From positions 6,446,236 to 6,510,235 of the forward strand of contig JAJEKV010000071.1 of assembly GCA_021234155.1 (NCBI GenBank): 64,000 nt of DNA. Direction: 5' to 3'. The first letter of the stretch is position 1. The number at the start of each line of letters is the position of its first letter. The translations under genes and the position numbers were made by a program. Below, one piece after another: positions 18,818 to 62,700 of the stretch. The notes under the pieces were generated by a model. The model made no database searches. It had not been told where the DNA came from and saw only the letters and a program-made list of their open reading frames with translations. The DNA comes from Isoetes taiwanensis. Taxonomy: Eukaryota; Streptophyta; Lycopodiopsida; Isoetales; Isoetaceae.

Positions 18818-18886
18818 TACAAGATCTTATGTATTAAGATGAAAGATATGTATTACAAAGTACAAGATCTCATGTATTAAGATGAA
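18818..18886 (+). repeat. Short tandem duplication
   Basis: GTACAAGATCTTATGTATTA occurs twice about 41 bases apart with one substitution, and each copy is followed by AGATGAA. It lies at the extreme 3' end of the GHTHxDID relic on the minus strand. Confidence 0.75.
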
Positions 18887-19527
18887 CAATGTGCTATGTC
18901 TTTCCACATGTCTACAATATATTTGAATTTGGACTGTTTCGGCCTCTTGCCATTGGCATCCCAAGCATAATGAATGGCATCTAAATTTTTCGCACCTTGA
19001 AGGATCGGAAGGATTAGGCCAACGCTTAGTCAAGCGATCTTTGTAGTCCCCTCCGGTGAGGCTTCCACCACGATACAAAAATATGGCCAAAATATGTAGA
19101 TTCCGGATCAAGAACAAAGATTCTCCTCTCGCATATCCTAACCAAGTGGCGTTGTTATCATCTCCGTGTCCGACTAGAACAAACATACCCTTTGTCACAT
19201 ATGCGTGAGGATCAAACTCTTCAAGAGGCAACACCGGACGGCCATCGGCGGGCCACAATAAGATGGTAAAGGTCGTGGTGACCAAAGGCAGATCGCCGAC
19301 CCTGGAACAAATGTTTGTTTGTTCTAGAGGAGCTTTTGTCTTGTTTGTGGCCCAAATGCATCATTTTGAGGGGCGTCACAGGCAACATCCTCCAAAGAGA
19401 TAAGAAGTCGGGCTCAATACTCAACACTTGCCGTGTATTGCCTTGCAAACAAGCTACTTTCTTGATTCTTACATATGTCCTTCCATAGGGAGATGTATTT
19501 GTTGATGCTATCCTTCAACCTGGAAGA

Positions 19528-19568
<41 letters not shown>

Positions 19569-22500
19569 TAGGCAAGTTTTTTAATTTTCTATTAATCTTA
19601 AAAACATAGTACAAGACCTTATTGGAGTAGGCTCCACAATAGGCCGGATAAAAATATTTGCAAGAACAATGGTCTACCAGATCCGGAAAAATAGTGTGAA
19701 TAACACACCAATCAAGATAAGAGTCCTAAGAGTAGTCTTTGTCCTTCAATTTCAAGCAAGAGTGCAGCCACTATAAATTCTACAAACATGGCCCTTTGAA
19801 GCTCCAACAACCGGTGATGCAAGCAAATGGAGCTTAAGTGAGAAAATGTCATACCATGCGTTAACTTGACACGGAAGTCATCACGCATTGCAATACTATA
19901 AGAGCTCGGCACCTTTCCAATCACGTACTAGGGGGTGAGTTAGCGACTCCATCTTCTGCTTTGCAAGAACTCATACAGGTCTACCTCAAGGAGGTGGTCT
20001 ACTTGCTCGTCTAATGCTCCTCCACCACCGGCATAGGCCACGTCTACAAAGTATGATTAAAGGAACCAAGGTCTCCAAGGCTTCTTTAAATGGCCTCCTT
20101 CTTTGCTCTACTTATCTGTTTACGCACTACCGCGGATACTAATCTCCCTAGCTGGGATAGGGATGGGCCGAACTCTAGAATAGCTCAACCAAAGTACTCT
20201 CCAAAGTACTAGAAAACAATGTCACGCCCAAAGGCGTAGACCATGACACTGTATTCCATAAGATTCCAGCCCTCTTAAGTCTCGAAGGCCCGGCCAACAA
20301 GATCTGCAGCTCCAAAGTGACTATAAAGGCTTCAAATGGTTCAAAAGAGGGCAGCTTAATATGTCTAGAGGCATCTGAATCTATCATTAGTTATCCCTTT
20401 GTCTTCCCATACATTAAGCTGCACAAAGCCAAGGTAATCTGATTCTTGTCGATTTTGAATAATATCAAAGCAAAGCAACCCGAAAGCTCCGGTATTTCGG
20501 GATATCATTCCCGATTCTATAACCGGCGGTAAGTGCGGGTTTGCAAAACCGCAAAGTGCAGCCTTCCTCTGCAATGAGTGCAAAGATGAAATCTGTCTGC
20601 CGTATTACTCAACATTGGACGATAGCGAACCGAATGACCAAGCTTATTTACTATTCAAAATCTCGTAGCATTAGCCCCGACAAAAGCAACTGGACCTTAA
20701 GCACACAAGCATCAAGTCTTTGGAAGCTCGAGGCGAAAACCGTTTTCAAATGCTTGCTAGATGCTACCTAATGCTGATCTATAGGCTCAAATCAAATGGC
20801 GTAAGCATGAGGACCAATTCTTACCCATCGGGCCGGACAAGCGGAGAGGAAAGATCCAAGAACAGCGGCCATGTCTTGAAAGCAGAACCCCTGTTGCCAA
20901 GATCCGATGAAGACCAAGTAGATGAGGGCTCTGGAGCATCAGCCATGGTCTGGCAAGACAGCAGCAAGCATTAGCTTACCGCTCTTCGACCATACGCTGC
21001 GGACTTTTGGAGCTCAAGACCTCGGGCGCCTGCCAGCCTAACTAAGCGGCTAGGGTTCCCTGGAAGATCTTTCAATGTTATTCTAGGAGGAATGATTTGT
21101 GGCACACCACTTGGTAGCATTGGCTGACCATGTTCATCCTCCTTCCACATTCTAACTCCTGGAGAATCTGATGGCAGCCACTCTTTATCTGTAGGATGCA
21201 TTTTGTATTGCATAAAAGGCCAATCTCCTGCCATCTTAAATTTGAAGAGCAAGGTTTCAATATGACCAACCAGGCATTGCCCTTATCAGGATGAATCCCT
21301 TCACGAAAGCCTTCCAATATGGGAATTCATCAATGAAGTATGGAATTGGAGATTTTGCATTGCACTTGTTGAACAAGTAAAGTACCTCTGGTAGTGTCAA
21401 AGCATCCGATGAACTCATCAAGATTGAATAAAGCATCAATATCATCATGGCTGTGGCCGACCATCATAAAGCCCACTTGGATCTCATCAAAGATCTTAAG
21501 CCAAGAAAAATAAAACAAGTATGAAAAGACATACCTATTTTTATTTTGCCGATGCATTATCAAGTTGCAAATAGAGATTTAGGGAGAGGGTTGAACACCT
21601 CGGGATTAGTTGTAGTTGAAGCATTTGGCAATACTTACGCCATAGAAGCAAGTTTGTTCTTCAAAGATTGGTATCCTTGATTTGCTTGCATCCATTTGCA
21701 ATCTGCTTACTTCCACATAAGTCACCTATCTTGTCCTCTTGTACCAATTCCAAGTTATGCAATATCCTAGAAAGTGAACCAATATGGAAGTTTGAATCAT
21801 CTTTCCATAAATCAAGTGAGAAATGACCATAGGCACGACCACCATGCCCATGAGTTAGAGCTCTGTCCAACCGCTCTTCAGCGATCACCTCTCCATACAG
21901 ATTTTGCTAGATGATGACTTCTAGGCACTAAAGTCTTAACCTCGATCCATCTTATCATGTATTATACATAGATGATTTTACGAGAGACATTTGTGACAAT
22001 GCTCTCCAATGCCAATATTGACTTACGCAAGAACATTTGCTCTAGCATATGAGGCCGGCGTTGAATTGCAAGATTTCGTCTCTCTCTTGTATCTTTTGTT
22101 TTTTTCCACTTTTTGCCTAATTACCACCTTGGATGTTGCATTTAGAGAGAATTTTGTATTTTTGCAATGCTAACATCTGGAAATTCCCTTTTCCATATAC
22201 TATAAAAGAGTTCAAGGCTACGGTTGTTTCTGTAAGCTCTTCCATGTTGCTCCAACTTCTTTATGTATAAGCTTCTTATTAAGAATGGAAGGAAGCTTGC
22301 GTACATTTTCTCTTACATCATCTCTACCTCTTTTTGCTCCTATGGGGGAATACTTTCAGCATTCTCTGAATGAATCATCTAGCACACATTAGGTGGCGAG
22401 TGTAGTGGATCACGGGCTTCTTAGAGCCGATATTACCATGTTGACTACCTTTGCACCTTCATATCTCTTTCTCCAATTGTAAAATGTTGGTCGACGATAC

Positions 22501-22905
22501 CTAAAGCCATCGCCACCCAATTGCAGAGAATTCCATCCCCTGAGGCACTATCTGTCCTCTCCTTCTCCTGTGTAAGTCACACTCAAGACGTCAAAAAAGG
22601 TAACCCTTGCATTGTATGGTTGGGATAAAATTCTTTTCTTAATTCACGCACTTGATTCTTGGTAAGTTTCTTGTTGCAAGTATTTTTGCGTGACTTGACT
22701 TCATGAACTTATTGATTGAAGTTGTGGAGCATAGCCTTTCCTCTTTGCTTTTCCCCTTGGGCTCTCTTGGAATCCTATGTGTGTAAGTATACTTCCTCTT
22801 TCGTTTGAATTGAGCACGAATGTTGTCCTCAAATGATTCAAGCTCTATATCCTCATTTTCTTTAGCTTCTCGAGCTTTGCAGATGTTGTGAGGCGGTCCT
22901 TCCAT
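18827..22905 (-). pseudogene. Relic 1 of a GHTHxDID-type element protein (DUF7869-like)
   Basis: Minus-strand coding blocks line up in order with relic 2 (59780-62700). They are: a basic N-terminal block (22905-22639), CIIHDKMDRG (near 21950), LTHGHGGRAYGHFSLDLWKD (about 21860-21800), NKNRYVFSYL...VGFMMVGHSHDDIDALF (21540-21430), TLPEVLYLFNKC..WKAFVKGFI (21400-21290), FKMAGDWPFMQYKMHP (21240-21190), LKDSINKYISLWKD (19525-19480) and a C-terminal FVLVGHGDDNNATWLGYARG (about 19190-19130). The VGHxHxDID signature and block order match the large uncharacterised eukaryotic family I know as DUF7869-type, whose members are often repeated like transposons; that label is from memory. Stops, frameshifts and the nested retroposon at 19533-21058 make it non-functional. 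An acidic frame at 23321-23118 could be further N-terminal sequence. Confidence 0.75.
19519..21072 (-). mobile_element. Poly(A) retroposon with 14 bp target-site duplication
   Basis: The 14-mer CCTGGAAGATCTTT occurs at 19519-19532 and again at 21059-21072. Between them lie a T-run at the left (through 19567, the poly(A) tail on the minus strand) and a 1.5 kb body ending at 21058. A perfect target duplication plus a poly(A) tail is the mark of LINE-machinery insertion. The minus-strand 5' end begins with GGAACCCTAGCCGC, like a plant 5' leader; a Met frame (MADAPEPSSTWSSSDL, from 20946) runs 41 codons. Farther on, 20583-20365 is open for 72 codons (PHLPPVIESGMISRN, LGFVQLNVWEDKG). No RT motif is present, so it is a processed pseudogene or a non-autonomous LINE. 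Removing it rejoins the host frame of relic 1. Confidence 0.85.
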
Positions 22906-23980
22906 CCAATGCTAAAGATCACATCGCTATTTTTCCCAATCGAAAAGTGCATTCTCGGTTGGCCTTTACAAGACAAGCATGACATCTCAGATCCTCTTTC
23001 ATTAGTTCTCGAAGCACCTTTCCAACACAAAGGCCAACCTTTGTGTCTCCTAAGAATTCATCATCAAAAAGATCCACGAGGATCTTGAATAGAATTATAG
23101 CTTACGCATATTTAGTTCTAGTACAAGAATGGAGAATGTGGCCTTTGCATTTCAAGAGTTCTCGTTCTTGAGTAACTAGGTGGTGGCTCATCATCATCGA
23201 TGGTATTCTCATGCGAGCAAACCCGAGTAGCTAAATCCAGCGATGGATCAATCTCTTCATCGCATCCGATCATGCCTCCCACAGATTCTATGTATGAGTT
23301 GTATGAGGTAGGTGTCCCCATGTCGATATTGGTGTCTCATCATGGGCTGCATCAATGCCATGAAAAAACGTGATATCGCTTGAGGCCATTCGATGAATGT
23401 GCCCTGATCTACAATATTATTATCGCACCCGCACATGCAATCGGAAGCACCGAAGTTGGCACCACGGCCTCTGAATAACTTGCACAACCACGTTCATTGC
23501 ATCCACATCCTTCCCATGGATGCTACTTCTATTCACCAATGACCTCTCGCCAACAACAACATTGTCAGCGCATAAGTTCACCAAGTTCTCCGTGTTGCTC
23601 ATTGGCTGAGATGAAGGAGAACGGGTGATGACGATGTAGAGGAACTACTAGGCGGGTTGGGGGTTTTAGTCTCGGATGATAATCTGGTGAAGCATGCGGG
23701 ATGATTCTCACATCACGCGTAGGCCATTCGATAAATGTGCCTACTGCCAAAGAACGTTATCCCTTTTGCACATGGAATGGGAAGCACATGGGATGGAATT
23801 ATGGAAAGCCCGGTAACCTCCCGACGGCGTTCTTAAAGTAGTCAATGCTCTTTCCATGTAGGTGCCCTCTATGCGGTTCATGCCCCCTAGCAACAACCCG
23901 CCCCCCGAGGGAAGTTTTGCAAGGTCCTTTTCTGCAAAGCATGCAATGACACACATTGTTAGAAACCCAGCGGAAATGAT
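22906..23980. repeat. Region with an imperfect internal duplication
   Basis: AGGCCATTCGATGAATGTGCC (about 23382; twenty of its bases shared) recurs as AGGCCATTCGATAAATGTGC at about 23722. Each is followed by GCAC(A)TG(C/G)AATCGGAAG-like and CTTTCCATG segments in the same order, giving two diverged units of about 200 bases, 340 apart. Open frames on the minus strand are short. They may be leader or N-terminal DNA of relic 1. Confidence 0.45.
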
Positions 23981-23999
23981 CATAAAATATTCACAAAAC

Positions 24000-24120
24000 G
24001 GGCAAATGGCTTGCACAAAACCAAAATGGCCAGCGCCATTTGAGTAAATAGCGCTTAAGCGCTATTTGAAGACAAATGGCGACCCCTGCTTATTTGATCT
24101 AATGGCCACCAAGCCATTTT
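24000..24120. repeat. Cluster of AAATGGC/GCCATTT motifs with a perfect palindrome
   Basis: CAAATGGC, AAAATGGCC, GCGCCATTTG, CAAATGGCG, ATGGCC and GCCATTTT occur within about 120 bases. At 24046-24067 there is a perfect 22-base palindrome with AGCGCT halves around TTAA. The same motif recurs densely at 25.7-25.9 kb. Confidence 0.75.
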
Positions 24121-24149
24121 AGCTTTTAGGAACAAAACAGAAAAACTTA

Positions 24150-24350
24150 GAGCATAGATTACGGTCTGATTACTACAGTTACTACATATAACTACAGGAT
24201 ACAACCAGACATCAAGATTACAGTTACACATTAGTAGAGATTACTACGGACTACAAGATTATTACAGACATTGTTACAGATTCGCAGATTACAACACACA
24301 CTGATTATTTCCCGGATTGTTACGGGTTACTACTGATTACTACGGTAGAA
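24150..24350 (+). repeat. GATTAC-type degenerate minisatellite
   Basis: GATTACTAC(A/G)G-like words recur about every 10-20 bases (GATTACGGTC, GATTACTACAG, AGATTACAG, GATTACTACGG, AGATTATTACAG, CAGATTACAAC, GATTACTACGG). No reading frame is preserved. Confidence 0.7.
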
Positions 24351-24489
24351 ACATTATTCGCACTTATAGGATAAATTGCGACAGTTAAACTAAAACAGAA
24401 CAGTCACTAACCTTGGGATCATTGTAGATCGAGAATACGCCATTGAAAGAAGGAAGAGCCTTGAATCAAGTAGGCCTTCAAAATAGAGG

Positions 24490-24645
24490 AAGCCCGCTAT
24501 GAAATGAAGAAGCGCTAACCAAGTGAAGCGCTCGCTATCAAATGAAGAAGCACGCTATGAAATGAAGAAGCGCATAATCAAGTGAAGCGCGCAACCAACT
24601 AAAGCGCCTACAACTGAAGGTAGCGCCCAAAGAAGCGCCTGTTGA
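24490..24645 (+). repeat. GAAGCGC minisatellite
   Basis: Irregular repeats of GAAGAAGCGC and CAAGTGAAGCGC with CTATGAAATGAAG linkers, about seven copies. The GCGC element echoes the GCGCCATTTG motif cluster nearby. Confidence 0.7.
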
Positions 24646-24849
24646 ACCAATGCCTAAGGCGGAATAGGCGTCGACTGGGGCGTAAGTCCTCTAAAGGCAT
24701 GCAAGTACATCGCGGATGTTGAAGGCGAGGGCGGGAGCGTAAAAATCGCAACCCGCGAATCTGAGGGGTGGCCTTACATTTACCATATCTGTACCAGCAA
24801 TTTTATAAACGGCTTTGAGGCGAGGGACCGCACAATATATGCGAAAAGT

Positions 24850-25200
24850 GGCGGAATTCAAATTTTAAAATTCTAGTGGCGGACTGGTGGGGAATTCAAA
24901 TTTTAGAATTCAATTGGCGGGACGGCTGGAAATTCAAATTCAAAATTTAAAATTCAAGTGACCCGGACCCGGAAGGAAGGGCTGACGGTGGCGGGCCAAA
25001 TCTGTCGGCGCCATTAATTCGTGAGGGTTTATTTTCTCTCATTTCATTTCTTTCATTTCATTTCATCCGCCATTATCGGCGCCTTCGCCCGGCCGCCAGT
25101 AGCCATTCCGCCTTCTCTCTCTTAGCGCCTTTGCTTTCTCTTTAAGCGCGCCGTGTTTTTCTCTCTAAGCTTCTTCGAGTAGCGGTTGATCCGGAGCTCG
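24850..25200 (+). promoter_or_regulatory. 5'-leader-like stretch
   Basis: Repeated GAATTCAAATTTT(A)AAATTC palindromic words (about 24852-24955) precede GC-rich DNA and then CATTTCATTTCTTTCATTTC and TCTCTCTTAGCGCC pyrimidine-rich sequence, the usual look of a plant 5' leader. GAAAAAAGGTGGAG at about 25205 could be a splice donor. No clear TATA box or coding exon follows, so this is an inference from composition only. Confidence 0.3.
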
Positions 25201-25338
25201 AGGAAAAAAGGTGGAGTAAATTTCTACGGTCCACGTGACGGGTCGCATATCTGATGGCCTCGTGTTCGGGTTAGTTAAATGCCGCATTTTTAAGCGTTTT
25301 CGGGGGTCATGGGTATTGAAATAGCAGCGGCGCTTTTC

Positions 25339-25480
25339 ATTTAGCCAGTGTCTAGGATAGTGAGTTTTACGTAGTTCCGTCTCGAAGAAATAAGCCTGAC
25401 CATGGCTGTTTCATGTAACCAGTGTCTAGGATAGTGAGTTTTGTGGTTCCGTCTGAAAGAAATATGGCGGGACGCCATTT
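25339..25480 (+). repeat. 78-base direct repeat
   Basis: CCAGTGTCTAGGATAGTGAG, then TTTT and GTTCCGTCT, then GAAGAAAT or AAAGAAAT, occurs at about 25343 and again at about 25420. One copy has an ACGTA insertion. It is a recent tandem duplication in non-coding DNA. Confidence 0.85.
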
Positions 25481-25483
25481 TTG

Positions 25484-25935
25484 GAATGTTACTTTTGTAG
25501 TTTGTTTAGATCGGATGTAGTGTAATGTAAATGGCCAATCGCCATTTCTCCACCGACCGGTCGCCTCTCCTCAACTTGCCAACAATCTAGAAAGTACGAG
25601 GCCTTATTATCGACTTTGGCGTCGAGAGAATGCCTCGACTTCATGGCGAGAATAGAAGTGTACACTCTGGATTGTTGTGCAGGCAGGGATTCCCAATTTC
25701 ACGGTCGAGAAATGGAGCGATGGCGCCATTTGCATGGAAATAGCGCATGCTGCGCCATTTGTATCGAAAATGGCCCTTTAGCGCCATTTGCCCGATCGAA
25801 ATGGCCTTGGGCGCCATTTGCATGAAATAGTTCCATGCAAATGGGCGCTATTACCATCATTCGGCCGCAAATGGCGATAAGCTTTTCCCGATACAAATGG
25901 CGATGATGGCTCATTTCCATGCAAATGTCAAATGA
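25484..25935. repeat. Dense array of GCGCCATTTG / CAAATGGCGC half-sites
   Basis: Between 25720 and 25935 there are about nine copies in both orientations: GGCGCCATTTGCATGG, GCGCCATTTGTATCG, GCGCCATTTGCCCG, GGCGCCATTTGCATG, then inverted ATGCAAATGGGCGCT, CGCAAATGGCG, ACAAATGGCG and ATGCAAATG. Earlier copies lie at 25484-25545. The left group points one way and the right group the other, giving a large imperfect palindrome centred near 25830. No gene is encoded by it. Confidence 0.8.
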
Positions 25936-25949
25936 GCGGGTTGGGTTTG

Positions 25950-28900
25950 GGTTTCATGATTTGAATGTTGATTTGTTGGTTTCTTGTGCAGCCGTTGTCC
26001 AAGGCCCAAAAGCGTTGTGGCGGAGAAGACCGTGGTCATGGCTGGAAGGCCATGGTGCATGGAAATTGTCAGGGTAATTCCCTTGGAGGAAGGGGTCGAC
26101 CCACAAAGGGGACAAGAGGAGAGAACTTTGCCTCCTCACAAAGTCGAAGTGGTGAACAAGGCGTTGTGATGCTTGGCATCATTGTCAACATGCGGGAGGT
26201 GGCGGGGAAGATTAGACTTCCTTGGTTGCTGCGATGGAGGATCCGTTAATTGCGGCATTGATCTCTCTTGCATGGGTAGCGGTTTCACGATCCATAGATG
26301 ATGGAATCCGGCATCAAGGACGAACGATCTACGCCAAAGAAAAAGGCTGGTCGTTGCCTTCATACGAAAGCAGAGAGGCAGCTGCTATTAATGGCACGGT
26401 CGAGCTACTTAGAGGATTTGGCATTCTCCGTTCGCTATGGGCGCATCAAAGAACTCGTGTGTCTCATATTGTCATGAGCCAAGACCTCTTGTGTATGCAC
26501 AACGTAATGGGCGGCACATGAAAGCCCCGACGGGGAGATTTCAAGGAAAAAGCGAGGCCAAGCCAAGACAAAGCCAAACAAGGCAAAGCCAAAAAGGGAA
26601 GAAAAAGGCAAACCAAAGGAAGTCCAAATGGAAGGGGGGCGGGAGGCATGAGGAAGAGAATCAAAGGAAAGGCGAGGAAAATCGAGTCTCCTCCCAAATC
26701 AGACTCCCAAGTCTCCTCCTATCGGGATCGGTTCTCCTATCAAGTCCCGGATAAGCGGAGGATTGAGAGAACCATTAGTGATACTAAATCCTCTCCACGC
26801 CGAGAGGTAAAGGGGACATCCATCGATGGCTGATAGCATTCCTTGAGAAAGGAGGAGGGAAACAAAGAAGGAGATGAGGGTCGAAGCGAGAGGAAAATGG
26901 AAAGTCTGGAGGTGCCCTCGGAGTTGAAGATGGACCGTGATGCCGAGGGAGGAGTTGGCAGAAGAAACTCTAAAAAATCTGGCCAGCCACGGTCACATGT
27001 TTCCTCTAGGTGTGACATATGTAAGAAAAATATCCATCGGGATATGGAAGAGGCACCTCCTAACATGGCAAAGACGAGTTGTAAAATCTTGAACATGTTA
27101 GGAACCGCCTGCAGAATCATTTCTTGAAAGATCCCCATCATCTTCCGCGCCCGGATGTGGTGCCCTTTGATCCAGTCTGGCGGCTAGTACCCGGTCGCAA
27201 GAATCATTTTGGCTGGTATGAGGTTCTACATTATCAACGGCAACCATTACGTCTCAGTAACTGACTCGTGTGTCGAAGTTGGGGGCCGAAGATGCGAGAA
27301 TAGAACTTCGAGAAAGATTTACACTTATAGAATGTGCGCGAGTTCTTTCTCGAGCATTGGTGACTTGGACCTTCTTATTTCGGTGTGGATGTCAATGACA
27401 TAAATGAGCGAGGACAATGTTTAAGGAACCCCACGCAGATCGGATACACCACCGCGTAGGCAATACCGAGAGTGCGGGAAGCCGGCACCAGCCAGGAAAA
27501 GGCCAATCAAGTTTAAGCGAATACAAGGTATGTACCATCGTATGAGCCAAATGGCACCGCTGCGCCATTTGAGTCAAATGGGTCATTTGACCTCAAATAA
27601 GTAGGCCATTGACACGACTTTGCCGCATTCAAGCTCTAACATATTTGGTTTGCCTTTCAAACGTACCTTGAAAATGGTTGACAAGATTCGAGGGAAAGCA
27701 TACCAAGGATGTCAACGGTTAGATTTTCATGGGGCGACATTTACGCTCTCTTTAGCCAAATGTGGAATAAATGGAAAAAGGGGAAAGATAACAAGGGCCA
27801 ACAAATAGCGATCAATTGGGCAAAGGATAAGGACTATTTTAGCGAGAACTACCTCGGATGCATGAGAGGCCGGATTAAGGTGCGTGAACTGTCCTCGGGG
27901 AAGCCATCGAGGGGACATTTACGTTAAAGGTCACATGGGATTACAAGGGTGATAATTTTTTTTCAAGGCGAGCCCGGAACTGGGATTCTTGCCTGCATGA
28001 AGAAGGAGATTCTCAACTACATCCATGATGAATTGGAATCAAGTCTGAAAGTTCGAGGACTTGAGAAAGGTGTCCGACGGATTCGGACTCAACCCTCCCT
28101 ATCGTGGGGTGTGGTGCATAATAAGTGGGTCTCGGGCGGAATCTTTTGAAGAGGGCGTCCATGGTAATGTGCCCTTCTCATTAAGGCAGATCCATCCAGA
28201 AGATTCTAAAGCGAGGCGAGGGCGAGTTCAAAGATTTTTTTGTGGAGTCGCGTTCTAGTGGTGGAATTGTCGGGGATGTCGGATCGTGTTGCCCCCAAAC
28301 ATGATCTGTTTGGATGCGAGGCAAATTACTCCGATTTGGGATCCCGCCACTACGGCCAAATTCTTTGATCTTCTAAGATGACGGATGTTGAGACATCTTG
28401 GGTAATATGTTTTGCTAAGCGGAACATACGAGTCTCTTACCTTTGCCACCAGAGAGACTAGAATCCGGATCTAGAGTTTACTTAGGCATGTCACGAAGAG
28501 GAAAGTGGGTGGGCACGGTGGTGGCACAAAAGAGCCAACGGTATGGTTCTAGCCACCGAGGGATCTCAGCCCAAGCACGGCTGATGAACACACGGATTTG
28601 AGGTTTTATGGTGAACATCCTTGGAAAGCACGAAGTTCTAAGACCCATAAAGATGCGATTGGTGCGAGCGAGGAGAATCGGCTAACAAGCTCTGAGGGCC
28701 GAGGTTCAAATCTGATTGGCAAAGGTATGGAAGGGAATACTTGGTTCACAAGCGAGGTTGGTCTGCTACAGCGCAATACCTTGTCGATAAGCTCTGCCCT
28801 CGGGTAACTTTGTTCGACTTTTTTTTTACGAGGTGGGGCTTTTTGCTAGGGTTTTATTGCAGCGATTAAAAAGGAGTAGTGTGGTCTATGAGCATGATGG

Positions 28901-28960
28901 AAAAAAGATCCAATGTATGCTAGGGATTCTTGGAAGAATTGGATTAACGTCATTAATCCC
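25950..28960 (+). pseudogene. Decayed coding-like region of unknown identity
   Basis: GC-richer DNA with many overlapping but short plus-strand frames. These are VVAEKTVVMAGRPWCMEIVR (about 26000), a 99-codon frame with RSIDDGIRHQGRTIYAKEKG (26222-26521), a Lys-rich stretch (26520-26680), and a 94-codon acidic/basic frame with SRCDICKKNIH (26843-27127) that looks like half of a zinc-binding site. Later come RPDVVPFDPVW and KNHFGWYEVL (about 27145-27225). The composition suggests former exons or a gag-like transposon gene, but frames are interrupted and I recognise no family. Another CAAATGGC palindromic pair lies at 27548-27600. Confidence 0.35.
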
Positions 28961-28978
28961 CTTGCTTGATCCGGCTGA

Positions 28979-29160
28979 CCATGGCCTCTCGTCGAGGGAT
29001 TCGACACTTTGCTGCGCCTACTCCGGGAGAGACATCACATGGTGGTGGAGGAGAGACATCACATGGTGGTGGAGGAGAGGTGCAGGCTGGTGCGAAGAGG
29101 AGACCCACGGGGATCCGGGGAAAAGTGGTACAAAGACCGATTCGCAGATTGGCCAAGTAA
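28979..29160 (+). CDS. Short C-terminal-like open frame with internal repeat
   Basis: An open frame from an in-frame Met at 28979 runs MASRRGIRHFAAPTPG and then two tandem copies of ETSHGGGG (an exact 24-base DNA duplication, about 29029-29076). It ends in a basic tail (GAKRRPTGIRGKVVQRPIRR) with a stop at 29158-29160. It could be the last exon of the decayed region upstream or a small standalone frame. Product unknown; a chance frame is not excluded. Confidence 0.25.
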
Positions 29161-29359
29161 GATCAACAGGATGATATTGATAAAGCTGGATGATCGTGTT
29201 TTTGGTGATGAATATTGAAACCGGTTGCATATCATACTTGTATATAAGATTTACCTCGTGGTATTGATGATTACTGTCTTGATTAATCTTTTGAATCTCG
29301 ATGACACATCGATCTTAATGTATTTGCCTTTTGTATATCTTACTTGTAAAGCAAATAGC

Positions 29360-29480
29360 AGCGACGCCATTTGCAATATGAATATATTACCTTAACAGGA
29401 GCTGCGGCGGCAGCTATTTGTTTGCCTTTTCGATGTATTGTCCTTATGATTCACTTCAAATGCGGCGACTTTTATTGATT
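29360..29480. repeat. Further GCCATTTG-type motifs
   Basis: GACGCCATTTGCAAT (about 29367), GCAGCTATTTG (about 29411) and CAAATGCGGCGAC (about 29458) extend the 24.0-25.9 kb motif family to the right. This suggests the whole 24.0-29.5 kb interval belongs to one element or amplified unit. Confidence 0.5.
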
Positions 29481-29705
29481 TTTTTCCACAATTTTTATTC
29501 AAATGGTATTAAATCGGAGGTTGTTTTTGTTCGTTTATCCCCATTTAATTGTGAAATAGAGCGGTTTTCGGGCTAATCCTCGTGCATTTTAAGTAAATAG
29601 CCAGATTTGATTCTTTGAATGTGTGAAAAACAACGAACAATTTCATTTTCGGCGAAAATGGAATCATTTTAAATTTCCAACTTTAATGAAACTCTTACGC
29701 TTCTA

Positions 29706-29815
29706 AGGGTGATCTTTGTTTTTATTTCCACCTCGAGGGTGACCATTTTTTTTTTAGCATGTTCGTTCTTCCACCCATTTGGGTGGCCTTTTCTCCACCC
29801 TACGGGTGATTTTAT
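29706..29815 (+). repeat. Series of GGGTG/CACCC mini-hairpins
   Basis: Three short hairpins succeed one another: CCACCTCGAGGGTG, CCACCCATTTGGGTGG and CCACCCTACGGGTGAT, separated by T-rich spacers. The stems are 4-6 bases. Function unknown; they may be minor repeats in the tail of the preceding element. Confidence 0.5.
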
Positions 29816-29819
29816 CTCC

Positions 29820-32340: not shown

Positions 32341-32352
32341 AGCCTTCCTAAT

Positions 32353-33426: not shown

Positions 33427-33488
33427 GTGCAAAGCGTTTCGGGAGGAGGATAAGTCTTCGCCGGAGAGGGAGCCTAAAGAATCTATAT

Positions 33489-48450: not shown

Positions 48451-48453
48451 ACA

Positions 48454-51800: not shown

Positions 51801-51805
51801 TAGAG

Positions 51806-52628
51806 TTGTGCCCATATACAAGCGAGGGGACCCCACAACCCGCCAACTATCTCATTACCATTATGGTCGTTATTCTGTCTTTGCCAAGTTGCTTGCGGGA
51901 TTCTTGAGCAGCCGACACTTTGGGCGAGGATGGAGAAGTGCGGGCTCTCCGCGCGGTGGGCTTCCGCCCCGGCATTCTACTATTGACCATATCTTCACTC
52001 TGCGAACACTCATAGAGGATAGCTAGGAATCAACGCTTGAGAACTGTATTGTTGCTTTGTGGATTTCGCGAAAGGCTTTTGACCTGATGCCTCGGGATAA
52101 GTTGTGGAATGATTGGGGCAATTTGGGGACCCCGTCGACTTGCGAATGCTATATCTGAGGACTATAAGGAGGCTTGCTCCGGCCGTCTCCACCTTTGTCG
52201 GGGAGCCGTTGTTAGTAGCATTGAAGTGCGCCCGGGGCTGCCCTCTATCCCCGGCAGCTCTTCGGCTTATACATTGACCCGGCTAGAAGAATGGCTATTT
52301 GAGCGCGAGGAGGCGGCTCAGTTGATGCACCATATAATCCGGCAACTCATATATGCGGATGATGTTGACTGCTCGCATATACCCGGAAGGAGGACATGCA
52401 AGCGCCACTGGATGCTTTGGACACTACGCCTTGAGATTCGGCGAGAGTTAACTTGGCCAAGGCGAGGGGTTCTGCTGGTCCCATCATCCGGCACCACGCC
52501 TTCCCTCATTCACTTACCAGGGGGGGGTAGTGGAGGTGGCTCGATCTTATAAGTATTTGGGCATTGAGTTTTCTACTACCACACTTTGGGATGCATCCAT
52601 CAGTTTCGGAGTCCTTGCATTTTGGAAA
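51806..52628 (+). mobile_element. LINE reverse transcriptase, 5' part of split element
   Basis: Begins in RT domain I (VPIYKRGDPTTRQLSHYH-like), followed by PPRHSTIDHIFTLRTLIED, the conserved LINE RT block, FAKAFD-like WISRKAFDLMPRDKLWN in another frame, QLIYADDVDCS (about 52339-52371; the catalytic Y/F-A-D-D box), and RSYKYLGIEFSTT (about 52534-52575). Frame breaks occur between the blocks. The 5' half including the endonuclease is missing. The element continues at 56070 after an insertion; joining the two sides at the duplicated TTTGGAAA keeps the frame (GVLAFWKALYAMQ). Confidence 0.88.
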
Positions 52629-53899: not shown

Positions 53900-54305
53900 A
53901 AAACGGTATAAATTTATACCGCAGGAAGTCTCTCGGTATAGATTTATACCATAAGATTTTTTTTTTTAGGATATATATATGCAAATATATATGTTATATA
54001 TATATTATATATTTATATAATATACATATATATATATTTTGGTATAAATTTATACCGAAAACTCTTCTTATGATAAATTTATACGTTGCGGGTCCTCTTG
54101 TGGTATAAATTTATACCACTTGGGTCTCTTTGGTATAAATTTATACCGCTGAGTCCTTTTGTGTATAAATTTATACCTCGAGTTCTTTTGTTGTATAAAT
54201 CTATACGCTCAAGTCTTCTTCTTGCGGTATAAATTTATACCGTGCAAACTCTCTAGTATACTATGTCCACATATTACTATCTATTGAGGTATAAATTTAT
54301 ACCAT
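53900..54305. repeat. Palindromic minisatellite GGTATAAATTTATACC
   Basis: The perfect 16-base palindrome GGTATAAATTTATACC or one-to-three-base variants occur at about 53905, 53936, 54039, 54071, 54102, 54131, 54163, 54194, 54227 and 54288. A half-degenerate copy lies at about 53135. From 54071 to 54227 the spacing is regular, near 31 bases, with CTCTTTG/GGGTC-like linkers. A (TA)n-rich block (53810-54035) separates early copies. Interior location in the hAT-like element; function unknown. Confidence 0.88.
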
Positions 54306-54597: not shown

Positions 54598-55770
54598 TAA
54601 GGCCCTTTTTCCATGGCACCTATGTCTTATATTTAGAGTCACGTTATTGGGCCACGTAAGAAAATAAGTCACTATAGTTTTTCCATTGAATGTGATTTAA
54701 GACATGTCTTAAATTGGTTCCATTACAACATGAGAGGAGTATTTTACTCCGGGAAACCCCCGCCACAAAATAAGGTAGTCTCCTCGGATCCAATCATGAG
54801 ACCTTTTCCCGCATGATTCGGCTGTCTTAAAAAAAGGTGGGCAAGAAAGAAAGTAGAAGAGCCGGTAGGAATAGAAGCCTAATGGAATCGACAAAGCGAG
54901 AAGAGGCAAGAGGCAGCGGCGGAATGGCTGGTCCGATTTGCTCAAATTTTACGATTTTGCCCGCCATATCAAGGGCAAAATGCTTCTCGCCCCGCCAAAT
55001 CATAGACCCAAAGCTTCCATACATAAGTGTTTTCATACTCAACTGTGAAACGACATCCAAGGCGATTAAGCTCCCTGGCGGCTTTTCTTTTGTCCTTTTC
55101 ATGAAATCAGAGAAGCAAGACTTCGGGTCCGATTGTTAAGAGGTACCAAATCCCTAAGATACAAAATTTGCAGGCGATTCTAATACATATATCGAATCCA
55201 CAACCCTTTTTTTATGCTAGGAGACCTGTTATTGAGCCCTTTTTCATGCCCTTCCATCCAAGCTGCAATTTGCAAAAAAGCGAAGATGGGTATTGAATCG
55301 TGAGCCAATTCGGTGATTTTTTCAGTATGGGGATATATGGGTACTTCGTTTCAAAGATCCATCTCTCATCGAGACCATTTCCTAAAATTTTCATTTCTAG
55401 TTTTTTGAAGCCCAATTTGAACCCCCGCCCATACTCTCCATATTATACCAAATCGAACTTCAAATCGTGCTCTAGCGAAGGATCCCATTCCACTTAAAGC
55501 CCGGGAATTTGATCATGGGCGAGATATTTGGACGTGATTTGATATGGAAAGCCATGGATCAGGAAACTAGGGAGTAGAAAACCAAATTTATGAGACTAGT
55601 GGAAAACCAAATTTATGAGACATGTCTTATATTATAAGACATCTCTTATAATCAAGCCATGGAAAACTAATCTTTTTAAGACATGTCACAAGAATGATGT
55701 GGCACCTAAAATGCTGTCTTATAATTATAAGACAGCCATATTTTAAGTCAGCCGTGGAAAAAGGGCCTAA
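54598..55770. mobile_element. PIF/Harbinger-like element nested in the hAT-like element
   Basis: TAA flanks both sides (54598-54600 and 55768-55770). The ends of the 1167-base element (54601-55767) are inverted repeats GGCCCTTTTTCCATGGC and GGCCCTTTTTCCACGGC (17 bases, one mismatch). A TAA target and GGSCC-type ends are characteristic of PIF/Harbinger and Tourist elements. Subterminal TGTCTTATATTT and TATTGG words match the element at 62940-63369. Minus-strand frames inside (54827-55102, RTKEKPPGSLIALDVV.., YGSFGSMIWRGEKHFALDMA; 55212-55415, KKLEMKILGNGLDERWIFET) look protein-like but are not Harbinger transposase; they may be captured host sequence. Non-autonomous. Confidence 0.85.
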
Positions 55771-56069
55771 ATATGTTTTTGGGCACTCTTAGTGCTTGTT
55801 GTTTTTTTTCAATGTCTATTTTGTTTTGTCCTTAAAAATATTACTATTTCTCAAACCAAACTAGGAGGCCAAAAATGGTACCAAACAATTTTGAATGAAA
55901 GCTGAGTTCAAATTCCCCTCCAAAAATGGTGCCTAAAATATTCAAATTGTCACACTTGTCACAAATATACCAAGAAAAGGGCATTTTTAAAGGGAATTTT
56001 AGGGAATCTTTCAAAGATTTCTTTTGAAGTGCGTTTGCAGCAAATAAGTGCGTTTCATTTTAAACTTTG

Positions 56070-57206
56070 TTTGGAAAGCCCTGTATGCAATGCAAAACAA
56101 CAGTCACAAGGCAGAGCTGTATGCATGGGGTCACTGGGCACACTTGTTCAGGGCCTTGGTTGAGCCGGTCCTCCTCTATGGGGCAGAAGTGTGGGGCCCG
56201 GTGATATCCCTCACCACTTGGAACGATCTAGAGCAAGTACATGAAGGCCTTCTTGGCCGGGCATCGGAGGGAAATCCACGGTCCCATATCGATCTTGCTC
56301 GGGGAGACAGGCTTCCTTCCATTCTGTAGGGCTTCATTTGAACGTCCCACATTATTTACTTCGTAAGGTGGTGGCTATGGATGAAGCTTTGGCTGCCCAA
56401 CCTTGCTTTGGCAAGGGCGATGGGCCCTTGCGACTCAAAGCTTCTTTGGAAAGACAAGCAAGCCCAAAGTGGTTCTCGCGATGGAATGTGCAGCACACGA
56501 TTATGGGCAAAGGTATACACCGAAGGAACGCTTTGCCTTGAAGCAAGATTTAGATGCTTGCTTCATGGCCAAGCTTTGGGATGCAGAGGCCACTGTCACA
56601 TGTCAAGGTGGCAAATTATCGACAACAAAGTTAATCCCATGCTCACGAGGGCCCACACCACTACCGCGCACCCATCTACCCATGAAAACGCAGGAGATTG
56701 CTTCCATTCAAGACAGTGCACACCACCTCCGCATTGAGACAGGAGATGGATTCGGGGCCGCGAGGACGTCCGTCTGTCGATCTTTGTCAGTGGCGCCATT
56801 GAGGATGAAAGTCACGCCCTCCAGGGCTGTTCAGATGACGAGCATATCGGGGCTCGGTATGCTTTCGGTTAGTTGTGCCCCATCAGGCCCTCGCATGAGC
56901 TTACCGAGCACGGCCTCTGTGTAGGTTTGTTGGGATCAGACCTCAGGGGAGGTAATGGATCTGCTTGACCGCTTATGCCCCCTCGTCAGGCATTAACCTC
57001 ACCGTGCTTGTGATTATGTATATAATCGCAATGCGAGATATCAGCATCCTTATTGCTACTAAGGTTTTCCCCAAAACCCTTCAAGCGGGGTTTTTAATCC
57101 ACGTAGTAATGCTTTCGCCGCTCTCTTTTTGTACTTGGGTCCCATAGGCCAATTGGTCTCCGAAAGTGGACGATAAAATCATATTCTATTCTATTCTATT
57201 CTATTT
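56070..57206 (+). mobile_element. LINE, 3' part of split element
   Basis: Resumes directly after the hAT-like insertion with ALYAMQNNSHKAEL, HLFRALVEPVLLYGAEVWGP and W.DLEQVHEGLLGR, the region after the RT thumb seen in plant LINEs of the same type. It then decays with several frame breaks over about 56330-56930 (the usual zinc-finger tail region). The 3' end is GGACGATAAAATCAT followed by (ATTCT)n at 57183-57206, a microsatellite tail typical of some LINEs instead of poly(A). Confidence 0.8.
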
Positions 57207-59385: not shown

Positions 59386-59584
59386 CCCTAATTTTCTTGC
59401 ATCTTTATTTTTCATGGCCTCTGGCGTGCCTTTTTGCTAGTTTTTTTTTTCTCTTAAATATTTTCTTCTTTTTGTTTTTCCTTTTTCTTTTTAAGAAGGC
59501 TTGCCTAACTTCCCCTACAACAATTCATAGAACTCTAGCCTACGATTGCCACATCATGAAGAAATGGTGTGGCGTAATACATTC

Positions 59585-59656
59585 AAGTCGTATTTAATTA
59601 AAGTGGGACAAATCTTGAATTTTGGGACTCGGACTGAAAATGGGACTCACACACCA
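59585..59656 (+). repeat. Third copy of the AAGTCG terminal repeat
   Basis: AAGTCGTATTTAATTAAAGT is identical to the left end at 43729, and the following GGGACTCGGACTGAAAATGG is matched by the reverse complement of 47700-47735, so this copy shares about 65 bases with the right end of the 4.0 kb element. It lies about 125 bases beyond the stop of GHTHxDID relic 2, with the inverted end pointing toward it. No partner end was found up to position 64000. Confidence 0.75.
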
Positions 59657-59779
59657 TAAAAGAAATTTCTGAATTGATTGCTTGAATAGAATTACACATG
59701 ACACACATAGAATTGGGTTACTTGTTTTCCTCATAAATTTTACAAACCACTAGTTGAGAAAGTTTTCAAACTTTCAATA

Positions 59780-62700
59780 TTATGCACCCTCATACAATGA
59801 TATAGCATGGAGGTTGCTCATGGCCTTGTCCATCTCCTTTCTTGGGATCTTGTGTGTGTTGTCTTTTTGCAATGTGAGAACTTGGATATGACCATACCAC
59901 ACACTCCACCAATTCCCTCCCTTTGAGGGTCAGCATAATTTGGCCTCCACTTCTTTCTCCCGCCAGTCAGTGTATTGCTCCTTCAAGTTGCCCTTCTTGT
60001 GCCTCCCAATGGGCTCCCAATATTGAATTTGGAATCCGTGATTAACTCCTCTCCATCGTGCATAGTGGTGGTCACATCGAGAGTGCCACCCCTAACCATA
60101 TTGGACAGTCCTCATCATCAGGCCTTACTAGCACAAAGTATCCTTCCTTGATGTCCTCAAAGGGATCCCACTCTGAGAAGATCAAACCCTTGGGGCTTTG
60201 AGGCCTTACTTCCCACAAACCACTTGGGACCCAAGTGAGCATTCTTAGACGTGCTTGCACCTTGAGAACCCTCCCATCTTGACTCTGGCAAGAACCCGTC
60301 TCTTAGCTCCCTCCCACATGGCTGTTCAGTTTCTAAGCATGTTACAACTTTCTCCCAGTACTTGATTAGGGAGTCCATTTGATTTTTCTTAAGAGTGGAG
60401 GTGTGCTTTCCATTTCGAACATCATCCCAGTGCGTTATGTAATCCTTGATGCCCTTCACCAGTTGGCTAGAGTCTTTGACTGTCTTGAAGGGAGGTAGTG
60501 GTTTTGGCTGCCCTTTAGGAATGAGAACTTCACCAAAGAACACCCCTTTGCCACAACTCGATACCTTGTACAGCATCCACAACTTGTCACCTGGTCTCCA
60601 CTTATATTGCATGATTGGTATTCCATCCCTAACCCAAAACTTGAATTGAAGTGGCTTTGTGTGTCCTGTCCAACCGTCCTTGCCATCTAGCAAGTATCCT
60701 TCTACAAATGATTTCCAATGCGAACCTCATCCATCAAGAAAGCCATTGGGTTGGGGTCAATGCAGCTCTCAAACACATCCATTAGTTCAGGGAGAGTGGT
60801 CACGTTTTCTCTCTTGAGCTTGGTGGAGAAAGTTCCAAAGAATCCATCAATATCATCATGCGTATGCCCAACCATCATGAATCCCACTTTCACAACTTTG
60901 AATACTCCCAACTTTGCCAAGTATGACATTGCCCCAAACATCCATCTATTCTTGTTTCTTTCCAAAGTTGTCCAACTGAACACATAGCTCCTCGTGCGTT
61001 GATTTTCTAGTAAGGGGAAATCATCCCAAGTCCTCCTTGATTCACTAGGCACCTTGGATGTGAGCTTTTTATCCGCCTTTGGTAACAAAGCGGTTGATCA
61101 TCCATCAAAGCCTCAAAATGGGTGCTGAAGGGGAATACCTCCTCCCTTCTATCGATCCTTTCTCTAGTGTTCTCAAGCACTTGAAAATAGAGCTCACATG
61201 GAAGTTTGGATCATCTCTCCATAGATCAAGCACAAAATGACCATATGTTCCAGTTCCATGACCATGTGTTAATACACCCATGGACTTACTTTCATCCGAA
61301 AAGCTGTTTTGACAACGCTTTTGGGTAAAGGATCTAGCTTTGGCAAGAAAGTCTTGTGTTGGTCCATCTTATCATGAATTATACACAAAAATTTGTCCTG
61401 GGTCAGCATCTCTAAAAAATGTTCTCCACCGCCAATACAACCGTCTACATGATATTTGGTCTCTTTGGTGATACGCAAATTGCTCCCTAATTGCCATTCT
61501 TTCTTTCTCTATTGCAGTTGATGCAAGTGTATCCTTGAGTTGAATGCAAGTGTTGCACTTTGAGAATGGCATGTGTTGTAGGACACTCACGTCCCGAGAA
61601 GTGAGTGCTCCATAACTTGCTGAAATGTGATTGAGAAAGAGGCCTACCTCCAGTAGTTTCTAGGATGGAGTTGACCTCCTTAAGGCACTCCCTTTTGGAT
61701 ATAGTGTTGTGGCAACACTTCTTGCACCACTTTCGCACACCGTGCTCGCTCACCTTCGACTTGTGGGGCATAGATTGAGACATGTATCTCACAAAGCTCT
61801 CGAAGACAGCAATGGCCTTTAGAGTATTTGCTCTAGGTTTCAAAGTGAGTGCATTACCATGTTGGAACAAAGTGTGCCCTTTTCTAACCTGCCCCAAGAT
61901 TCAGAAATGAAGACTTGCTCACCCCAAGAATCCATCTCAATGCTCTCATATATACCTTCATTCCCTCAATTGATATAGCAAAATTGGCCCTGCGGTTTTC
62001 ATCATATTTGGAATTCCTACACAAGGAGTAAATGAAATTAATCCTATCTTTTTGAAGCTGTCCAATGTATTGGGACCTTATCTCCAGACGAGGTCATCCA
62101 CATTGTAATGCATCAGGCAATCTAGGTTGCAACACTCTTGTCCCCTAATTGCCTCCGTGTTTTCTTTGGTTGGTGCCATACTTTCCATCCTTTCTAAATA
62201 TTTGTCACTTCTAGGCCTCTTGGGCACCTTTGGTGCCTTTTATGAAAGACATAGCGTCTCTTCCTTGTGATCAAAGGATGCTCATCGACCACCAAATCTT
62301 CCACATGGCCTTGGGTGGGCCTTTGGGGTGTGTAGTTCAAGAGGGGCATTCTAGAGTATCACCATTCTTGTGTGTAATAAATCTAATTGGCCATCTCAAT
62401 CGAGCTTGGGACTCCAGCACTCGGGGAAAGCACACAATGCAATCACTAGAGCTTCCTGGGACATGATAGTATCAACTTCGATAAGAAGCTTCACAATGCC
62501 AACTCCAAGATGTTCATCTCCCCACCTCTCATCATTCACACTATCAAATGGATCAACAAGTAGTTATTATGCCCTCCAGAATACCATCCGGGTTGCAAGG
62601 GTGCAACAAAAGGCAACCCATCCTCCTCCATTGGAGCCTAGGGCAATGGCCTCCTTTGGACTTCCCTGGCTCCATTTTACTCATCTCACATGCTCCCTCG
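59780..62700 (-). pseudogene. Relic 2 of a GHTHxDID-type element protein (DUF7869-like)
   Basis: Minus-strand blocks in order: RGQECCNLDCLMHY (near 62130; Cys-rich), KWCKKCCHNTI (about 61720), FSKCNTCIQLKDTLASTA (about 61565-61510), FLCIIHDKMDQHKTFLPKLD (about 61395-61330), LTHGHG..YGHFVLDLWRDD (about 61275-61215), RNKNRWMFGAMSYL and VVKVGFMMVGHTHDDIDGFF (about 60970-60830), TLPELMDVFESC, WKSFVEGYLLDGKDGWTG, LQFKFWVRDGIPIMQYKWRP (about 60660-60600), YFVLVRPDDEDCPIWLG (about 60140-60090), and a C-terminal frame ending at 59780. The order and spacing match relic 1. The VGHTHDDID signature places it in the uncharacterised family I call DUF7869-type (label from memory). Frameshifts at about 60700 and elsewhere break it. 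It lacks the retroposon of relic 1. Confidence 0.8.

What the first reader, a model, noticed from the sequence alone, without database searches (positions are those of the whole stretch)
18827..62700. Two relics of one GHTHxDID protein family, both minus strand, 38 kb apart
Ten or so blocks align in order between 18827-22905 and 59780-62700 (CIIHDKMD, LTHGHGxxxYGHFxLDLW, VGFMMVGHxHDDIDxxF, TLPExxxxF, WKxFVxGxx, FKFxxxxxPxMQYKxxP, FVLVxxxDD...WLG). The Asp/His-rich HGHG and GHxHDDID segments look like metal-binding catalytic motifs of a nuclease-type enzyme. If the family is a DDE-like transposase this would be an underdescribed superfamily. The family label is from memory; transposase activity is inference.
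Basis: partly seen in the sequence, partly recalled or inferred. Interest (0 to 1): 0.8.

Follow-up and report, generated by a model that had tools for sequence, protein, structure and literature searches.

The report
Giant DNA transposons with methyltransferase genes
The two broken genes are decayed transposases of large cut-and-paste "jumping genes" in a quillwort-like plant genome; these elements also carry a bacterial-looking DNA-binding/DNA-methylating protein on the opposite strand and their own family-specific arrays of palindromic DNA sites, which suggests a self-recognition system that can now be tested.

Summary
In detail: both stretches encode decayed members of Pfam DUF7869 (PF25273), in colinear order. 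Each lies in a complete DNA transposon with terminal inverted repeats (TIRs) and a perfect 4-bp target duplication: element A, 16963-29702 (CTAA); element B, 59585 to 8.1 kb beyond the window (ATTC). A third, non-autonomous element lies at 52627-56071 (TGGA). All 13 elements whose two ends I found have 4-bp duplications, and pre-insertion sites exist, one 100% identical over 400 bp. The genome (1.658 Gb) matches published Isoetes taiwanensis assembly statistics.

The elements carry a divergent second gene: a ParB-like region plus an N6/N4 DNA methyltransferase. This anatomy is published for giant Sola-1 transposons of algae, so it is a variant of a known kind. Direct Sola sequence comparison was impossible, and fold prediction failed.

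Two things I found in no paper seen. (1) Each family has its own ~16-22-bp palindrome, about 2-14 sites per element, in family C regularly spaced (41-42 bp in 45 of 50 listed pairs), and kept in non-autonomous copies; these may be parS-like sites for the ParB-like protein. (2) In family A the methyltransferase lacks a conserved catalytic motif, yet its gene shows purifying selection.

The parts
16963..29702 (-). Element A: complete TIR-bounded DNA transposon (12,740 bp including a 1.5-kb later insertion)
   Evidence: Ends shared by L013, L014, L015 while flanks differ; TIR AAGCAGAGTTTCATTAAAGTTGGAA; flanks occur uninterrupted elsewhere
16959..16962 (.). Target-site duplication CTAA, left copy of element A
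29703..29706 (.). Target-site duplication CTAA, right copy of element A
18827..22911 (-).
21330..21906 (-). DUF7869 core of element A (GHSHDDID, HGHG segments)
19533..21058 (-). Later retroposon-like insertion in element A (poly-A end, 14-bp duplication CCTGGAAGATCTTT at 19519-19532 and 21059-21072)
24046..24067 (.). Family-A palindrome site AAATGGCGC-N4-GCGCCATTT (2 mismatches)
25710..25789 (.). Two family-A palindrome sites (25710, 25768; 1 mismatch each); a third at 25895 (4 mismatches)
27549..27570 (.). Family-A palindrome site (1 mismatch) between the ParB-like and methyltransferase-like parts
27207..27542 (+). Decayed ParB-like part of the accessory gene of element A
   Evidence: tblastn 44-46% identity, E 8e-18 to the family-A copy in L015/L022
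27640..29037 (+). Decayed methyltransferase-like part of the accessory gene of element A, opposite strand to the transposase
   Evidence: tblastn 38% identity over 508 columns, E 3e-56 to the 529-aa open copy in L022
52627..56071 (.). Third element: 3,445-bp non-autonomous relative of family D (TIR AACAA.GTTTAAAATGAAACGCACTTATTT)
   Evidence: no transposase match inside it
52623..52626 (.). Target-site duplication TGGA, left copy of third element (right copy 56072-56075)
53905..54303 (.). Array of nine palindromes GGTATAAATTTATACC (0-3 mismatches); steps 30, 106, 61, 30, 30, 30, 34, 62 bp
59585..64000 (-). Element B, part inside the window; it continues to position 72086 counted from window start (C1080:6518321), right duplication ATTC there
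59581..59584 (.). Target-site duplication ATTC, left copy of element B
60072..62093 (-). Decayed DUF7869 transposase gene of element B
62941..63369 (.). Small later insertion in element B (imperfect TIR GGGGCTTTTCACACGA / TCGTGTGAAAAGGCCC; flanked by TAAG)
   Evidence: absent from L009-L012; ends read

Best explanation
Both relics are decayed transposase genes (DUF7869, a probable DDD-type cut-and-paste enzyme) of two families of large, Sola-like DNA transposons. Each element has short TIRs, makes a 4-bp target duplication, and carries a divergently transcribed second gene whose product joins a ParB-like DNA-binding region to an N6/N4-type DNA methyltransferase domain (degenerate in family A). 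Shown here: element ends, duplications, empty sites, gene order, selection on the second gene of family A. Inferred: that the transposase cuts through a D-D-D site on an RNase H-like fold, and that the second protein binds the element's own DNA (probably the family-specific palindromes) to regulate or mark it.
For: DUF7869 hits. Dispersed copies: for B 39 others scored of 2205 first-look candidates, 31 of them over practically the whole 3.1-kb query at 92-95% identity; for A 39 others scored of 2014. TIRs and 4-bp duplications in 13 of 13 elements with both ends in hand, with 13 different sequences. Empty sites: joined flanks of the L010 copy found intact at 100% over 400 bp; joined flanks of window element A found unbroken at 38 places, 77-87% identity. 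N6_N4_Mtase (PF01555): 150 of 150 scored places over cut-off (1444 candidates); among the two lists of 150, 24 DUF7869/methyltransferase pairs lie within 15 kb against a control mean of 0.59 (maximum 5 in 2000 shifts), 23 on opposite strands, 22 of them with the methyltransferase upstream, 17 of those at 5.0-6.1 kb. The methyltransferase exon matches CcrM, M.MboIIA and M.RsrI in the PDB (E 2.6e-9 to 1.4e-6; profile 7.8e-12 to 1.8e-8). Published precedent: Sola1-1_Ec32 (PMC12477816, section 5 part 2 read).
Against: No Sola reference sequence was available, so the Sola name rests on features. Structure prediction failed and no PDB chain matched the DUF7869 profile. The ParB assignment by family searches is weak (best: DUF6551 E 0.0086, phrog_723 ParB-like E 0.018, TIGR03764 ParB family E 0.039-0.041); it leans on a motif read by eye and on the published algal case. 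Of 150 methyltransferase places, most have no DUF7869 partner within the listed 150, which may only reflect the capped lists. No expression or activity data.
Confidence: 0.88

Rival explanations
1. The family is a transposon superfamily distinct from Sola that has independently acquired a ParB-methyltransferase gene.
For: No direct sequence test against Sola was possible; Pfam lists it only as DUF7869 and 0 papers in the searched library name DUF7869.
Against: Same duplication length, DDD-like motifs, large size and the same unusual opposite-strand accessory gene as Sola-1 (passages read).
Confidence: 0.15
2. The palindromes are binding sites of the transposase itself (like subterminal motifs of CACTA elements, recalled) or of a host factor, not of the ParB-like protein.
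For: Sites are kept in non-autonomous elements (window 52627-56071, L010 outer element), which need the transposase in trans.
Against: Sites are mostly internal, between the divergent genes and within the accessory gene region, not subterminal; long perfect palindromes in arrays resemble parS/operator arrays (recalled).
Confidence: 0.35
3. Palindrome arrays are just tandem-repeat or hairpin-forming junk that hitch-hikes inside the elements.
For: Some family-B sites occur in A copies (L014 3, L015 1), one A site in a B copy, and two B sites lie outside mapped elements. In the decayed copies B_win and A_L014 the total number of palindromes (8, 6) is not clearly above simulation (1-7, 0-5).
Against: In family C the palindrome is conserved while many spacer sequences differ, and spacing stays 41-42 bp in 45 of 50 listed pairs (copies are related, so the pairs are not independent); each family has a different palindrome.
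Confidence: 0.2
4. Ordinary host gene paralogues that duplicated with their surroundings.
For: Both copies lie on one contig on the same strand (window).
Against: Element ends, target duplications, dispersed copies, empty sites.
Confidence: 0.01

Closest known systems
Sola1-1_Ec32, giant Sola-1 transposon of the brown alga Ectocarpus (PMC12477816, section 5 part 2 and found passages read)
   Same: Giant cut-and-paste element with an opposite-strand gene for a ParB-like plus N4/N6 DNA methyltransferase protein; authors propose it binds and marks its own DNA
   Different: Here in what is very probably a vascular land plant, about 8-12.5 kb rather than 21.5 kb, several families with many copies; family-specific palindrome arrays and a family with a degenerate methyltransferase. 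The word 'palindrom' does not occur in that paper's main text; its supplements were not seen
Sola superfamily in general (PMC10741241, passages read)
   Same: TIRs, 4-bp duplications, DDD-type transposase; known from the moss Physcomitrella, not common in flowering plants
   Different: That review gives most sizes as 2-9 kb, some over 15 kb; no accessory gene mentioned in the passages read
Green and red algal transposons with ParB-methyltransferase proteins (refs 50 and 51 of PMC12477816; not read)
   Same: Same accessory protein type as cited there
   Different: Not compared here
Bacterial ParB-parS partition systems (recalled)
   Same: ParB-like region together with short palindromic sites in the same mobile DNA
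   Different: No ParA-like gene turned up among the frames scanned (no dedicated search was made); eukaryotic transposon; joined to a methyltransferase; longer palindromes

Membership tests
DUF7869 (PF25273) | Profile match above the curated cut-off | tested here: met
   54.2 and 85.3 bits against 26
Sola superfamily (Sola1) | 4-bp target-site duplication | tested here: met
   13 of 13 elements with both ends; for the two family-C elements the boundary was chosen between two possible readings because the target is palindromic
Sola superfamily (Sola1) | TIRs | tested here: met
   About 20-30 bp in four families
Sola superfamily (Sola1) | DDD-type transposase on an RNase H-like fold | tested here: inconclusive
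   Conserved D motifs in order; models too poor to judge
Sola superfamily (Sola1) | Sequence relationship to Repbase Sola transposases | not testable with these tools
   No Sola sequence held
N6_N4_Mtase (PF01555) | Profile match; motif I and catalytic (D/N/S)PP(Y/F/W)-type motif, for families C and D | tested here: met
   Family C: E 2.3e-18, 2.7e-16, 2.1e-17 in 3 of 3 elements. Motifs: VLDAFSGSGTT in 4 of 4; DLPY in L033, L034, L035 and DIPY in L029. The family-D exon (L029) was aligned but not scanned against Pfam
N6_N4_Mtase (PF01555) | Same, for family A | tested here: not met
   E 0.051, below cut-off; motif I recognisable (profile E 3.9e-5, probability 71%); no catalytic-type motif at the place suggested by spacing in 10 of 10 copies; NVPF/NMPF lies about 45 residues upstream in 6 and is absent in 4; motif-IV exon comparison not significant (E 0.76)
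ParB/Srx-like | Profile match | tested here: inconclusive
   Only weak matches, E 0.0086-0.07 (that DUF6551 is ParB-like is recalled); GG-x-HS-x-KAR motif by eye

The most novel reading that the evidence does not exclude
These transposons carry a partition-like self-recognition system: a transposon-encoded ParB-like/methyltransferase protein binds family-specific, regularly spaced palindrome arrays within its own element and its non-autonomous derivatives. The protein has diverged together with its sites into at least four specificities, and in family A (perhaps B) it has lost methylation while its gene is kept by selection for DNA binding.
Probability: 0.45. Interest if true: 0.82.

Novelty: new variant of a known kind. 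Interest (0 to 1): 0.66.

Why it matters
It ties a Pfam 'unknown function' family to a mobile element with defined ends, shows bacterial-type DNA methyltransferase genes in many places (150 of 150 scored, 1444 candidates) of what is very probably a lycophyte genome, and supplies a missing piece of the published idea that such accessory proteins act on their own element: candidate cognate sites that can be tested directly by binding and methylation mapping. It also warns that adenine-methyltransferase-like genes in plant assemblies may be transposon passengers.

Tried and rejected
Host paralogy was rejected (ends, duplications, empty sites). HGHG as catalytic motif was rejected (not conserved). 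Fold test: two AlphaFold2 jobs on L037 plus window fragments gave mean pLDDT 45.6 and 41.2, so no fold search was run on them. PDB profile search with DUF7869: 0 matches at E 10. Relatives in viral contigs: none in four related-loci scans and two pattern scans; plasmids: none; prokaryote genome contigs: one (L037 in a cyanobacterial MAG; its other frames show no recognisable gene by eye, so a eukaryotic contaminant is my guess). Searches for Sola with lycophytes or Isoetes (3 papers, 20 of 119 listed) listed none reporting this element; only listings and abstract starts were seen. The B-family accessory region was checked for a catalytic motif only in two degenerate copies: SPPF and SLPF occur there, and whether either is a catalytic motif is unknown, so inactivity of B is unproven. 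The pair L034/L033 in the second methyltransferase exon (omega 0.79) is unreliable because the first part of the L033 frame does not align.
Full report
WHAT WAS CHECKED. Fragments 21330-21578(-) and 60702-61097(-) match PF25273 (DUF7869) with E 1.8e-14 and 5.3e-24, and an intact 963-aa homologue (L037, from a contig filed under an uncultured Synechococcales MAG) aligns in order to both. Copy A is interrupted by a 1.5-kb retroposon-like insertion, 19533-21058, with a poly-A end and a 14-bp duplication; in 37 of the 39 other scored copies the two sides adjoin directly. The insertion itself resembles 40 scored places of 372 candidates, itself included; many share its 3' end with variable 5' starts.

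ORGANISM. The genome (G000) has 1,658,258,908 bases in 1110 contigs. The published Isoetes taiwanensis assembly has 1658.30 Mb in 204 scaffolds plus 909 contigs (PMC8566536, section 6 read). I take the window to be from that quillwort; this is an inference from assembly statistics. That paper's main text has no occurrence of 'Sola' or 'DNA transposon'; its supplements were not seen.

IT IS A TRANSPOSON. DNA searches with each copy gave 40 scored places each, self included (of 2205 and 2014 first-look candidates); 31 of the 39 other B places cover practically the whole query at 92-95% identity. Fetching neighbours of three A and three B copies defined the ends. Element A: TIR AAGCAGAGTTTCATTAAAGTTGGAA, 11.1-11.3 kb in L013, L014, L015; duplications TAAA, AATC, AGCT and CTAA for the window copy 16963-29702. 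Element B: TIR AAGTCGTATTTAATTAAAGTGGGAC, 12.0-12.2 kb in L009, L010, L011; duplications ATTG, AGAA, CTTT, a further outer element around L010 with AACC, and ATTC for the window copy. The two TIRs are alike (AAG, TTT, ATTAAAGT, GGA). Two more families were met among the less decayed DUF7869 genes: C (L035+L036, 8373 bp, duplication TTAA; L033, about 8.1 kb, ATAT) and D (L001 with L028 and L029, about 9.5 kb, CTAC). In family C the targets are palindromic, so the exact boundary was chosen between two readings. A third element in the window itself, 52627-56071, has D-like TIRs and duplication TGGA but no transposase match. In total 13 of 13 elements with both ends in hand have 4-bp duplications. 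Not examined, because one or both ends were not fetched: L012, L016, L034, L030, L031 and L002-L008.

EMPTY SITES. The flanks of the inner L010 element, joined with one duplication copy, match C985:15825822-15826221 at 100% over 400 bp, plus three places at 87-91%. The flanks of window element A, joined likewise, match 38 places that run unbroken across the junction at 77-87% identity (40 candidates scored of 1540). So A landed in another dispersed repeat, and the L010 insertion is probably recent.

THE TRANSPOSASE. Open frames up to 987 aa exist (L030). Conserved blocks in order: DxMD, (L/M)DN...NKN, GHTHDxIDxxF. The D-D-D assignment and the fold are inference: both predictions failed, and there is no PDB relative by sequence. 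Nucleotide comparison of six DUF7869 domains gives omega 0.04-0.15 in the 6 of 15 pairs where dS could be estimated.

THE SECOND GENE. On the opposite strand, head to head with the transposase, lies a gene whose product has a ParB-like region (HYVLGGNHSFKARRQL in C) and a methyltransferase region (DLPYG; VLDAFSGSGTT). The methyltransferase exon of three family-C elements matches PF01555 at 2.7e-16 to 2.3e-18, and M.MboIIA, CcrM and M.RsrI in the PDB. ParB matches by family search are weak. Genome-wide, PF01555 gave 150 of 150 scored places over cut-off (1444 candidates), PF25273 150 of 150 (9909 candidates). Between these two lists 24 pairs lie within 15 kb (control mean 0.59, maximum 5 in 2000 shifts); 23 are on opposite strands, 22 of these divergent with the methyltransferase upstream, 17 at 5.0-6.1 kb; one pair has the methyltransferase downstream and one is on the same strand. 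In window element A this gene survives as fragments at 27207-27542 and 27640-29037 on the plus strand.

FAMILY A HAS A DEGENERATE METHYLTRANSFERASE UNDER SELECTION. A 529-aa open copy (L022) gave 82 scored places of 4212 candidates. Of these I took L022 and nine others without stops (10 in all; copies with stops were left out, and not all stop-free ones were taken). Motif I is recognisable (VLDFFS.GAF in most; profile E 3.9e-5, probability 71%, to the C/D exon). No (D/N/S)PP(Y/F/W)-like motif lies at the place suggested by spacing in 10 of 10; NVPF or NMPF occurs about 45 residues upstream in 6 and is absent in 4; the motif-IV exon comparison is not significant, so the correspondence of that region is uncertain. 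Yet omega is 0.07-0.13 in the 13 of 24 between-subfamily pairs where dS could be estimated (high, 1.9-3.2), and 0.24-0.62 within subfamilies, except 0.57-0.85 for the three closest pairs among L040-L042. A stop-free neutral control gave mean 0.97, range 0.61-1.49 (40 simulations), so three of the 45 pairs (0.62, 0.75, 0.85) lie within the neutral range. I read this as a functional protein that has probably lost catalysis.

PALINDROME ARRAYS. Each family holds its own palindrome. C: AAGTGTATTCCGGAATACACTT (12, 10 and 7 sites at up to 4 mismatches in L035, L033 and the incomplete L034). B: TTCTCGACTCGCGAGTCGAGAA (14, 7 and 11 in L009, L010, L011; 3 in the window copy). A: AAATGGCGC-N4-GCGCCATTT (11, 2, 11 and 5 in L013, L014, L015, window). 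D: GGTATGAATTCATACC (8 or 9 in L001, by two searches). Results against a strict pattern: B sites in A copies L014 (3) and L015 (1), one A site in B copy L011, and two B sites outside mapped elements (window 45022; one in the L010 stretch); in the decayed copies B_win and A_L014 the total of imperfect palindromes is not clearly above simulation (8 against 1-7, 6 against 0-5), and in family A no perfect 10-mer palindrome recurs more than twice. Non-autonomous elements keep sites: three B sites in the outer element of L010, and eleven GGTATAAATTTATACC-like sites (up to 3 mismatches) in the third window element, nine of them in 53905-54303 with steps 30, 106, 61, 30, 30, 30, 34, 62 bp; the same search found one further site in the rest of the 74 kb, inside element A at 17630. 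Genome-wide, the exact 22-mers occur 1810 (C) and 3678 (B) times with 0 for the reversed controls. On contigs C1-C97, the part of the C list that was printed, 6 of 7 PF01555 places have a C site within 2 kb (C29 does not). C pairs: 676 in the genome; of the 50 plus-strand places printed, 45 are 41 or 42 bp apart (26-56 allowed), although many spacer sequences differ (related copies, so not independent). B pairs: 1024, with broader spacing of about 46-69 bp in the printed part. The sites lie mainly between the divergent genes and within the accessory gene region.

MECHANISM. Most likely: the DUF7869 enzyme excises and integrates the element at the TIRs; the accessory protein, through its ParB-like region, binds the palindromes of its own family, several of which sit between the two divergent genes, and there regulates or marks the element (methylation in C/D; binding only in A). 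Shown: anatomy, association, selection, site arrays. Inferred: binding, methylation, regulation. The main rival is that the transposase or a host factor binds the palindromes.

COMPARISON WITH THE LITERATURE. Giant Sola-1 elements with an opposite-strand ParB plus N4/N6 methyltransferase gene are described in Ectocarpus, citing green and red algae (PMC12477816, section 5 part 2 and passages read). Sola: DDD transposase, 4-bp duplications, moss, not common in flowering plants (PMC10741241, passages read). 'DUF7869' occurs in no paper of the searched library. I saw no report of the palindromes: 'palindrom' is absent from the Ectocarpus main text, and apart from that paper the searches combining ParB, Sola and transposon (20 of 94 listed) or Isoetes, Sola, transposon and lycophyte (20 of 119 listed) showed nothing similar by title or abstract start. 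References 50 and 51 of the Ectocarpus paper were not read, so priority is not certain.

Noticed in passing
window 1-4300: About 4 kb of almost purely purine (GA-rich) plus-strand sequence, GC and AT skew both about 0.73, with many short degenerate tandem repeats; a 474-aa open frame on the other strand is probably spurious.
   Followed up: partly
window 52627-56071: A third, non-autonomous relative with family-D-like TIRs, TGGA duplication and a palindrome array; outside the two relics but between them.
   Followed up: yes
window 62941-63369: 429-bp insertion with imperfect TIRs and a 4-bp flank repeat TAAG inside element B; a MITE-like element of unknown family.
   Followed up: partly
window 19533-21058: Retroposon-like insertion with poly-A and 14-bp duplication; dispersed, often 5'-truncated copies in the genome.
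   Followed up: partly
window 11540-12618: Dispersed repeat shared at 87% with the region beside L001; open frames look like a LINE reverse-transcriptase C-terminus by eye.
   Followed up: no
window 32710-33093, 36373-36786, 48418-49008: Frames that by eye resemble a retrotransposon gag, a GDSL-lipase exon and a PPR protein.
   Followed up: no
beyond the window, positions 72111-72281 counted from window start: A further DUF7869-like fragment (45% identity to L030 residues 704-764) just past the right end of element B.
   Followed up: no
L024/L018 (B copy of L009), element coordinates 1529-2014, minus strand: NLI-interacting-factor-like (HAD) phosphatase domain, E 4.5e-4, 20.4 bits just below the Pfam cut-off of 21.8, next to the accessory gene of family B: a possible further captured gene.
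   Followed up: partly
L033 and L035 insertion sites: Family-C targets are palindromic (TTCTCATATGAGAA, CTTAAG); possible target preference.
   Followed up: no
L037: Intact 963-aa DUF7869 gene on a 4.3-kb contig in a cyanobacterial MAG; perhaps eukaryotic contamination.
   Followed up: partly
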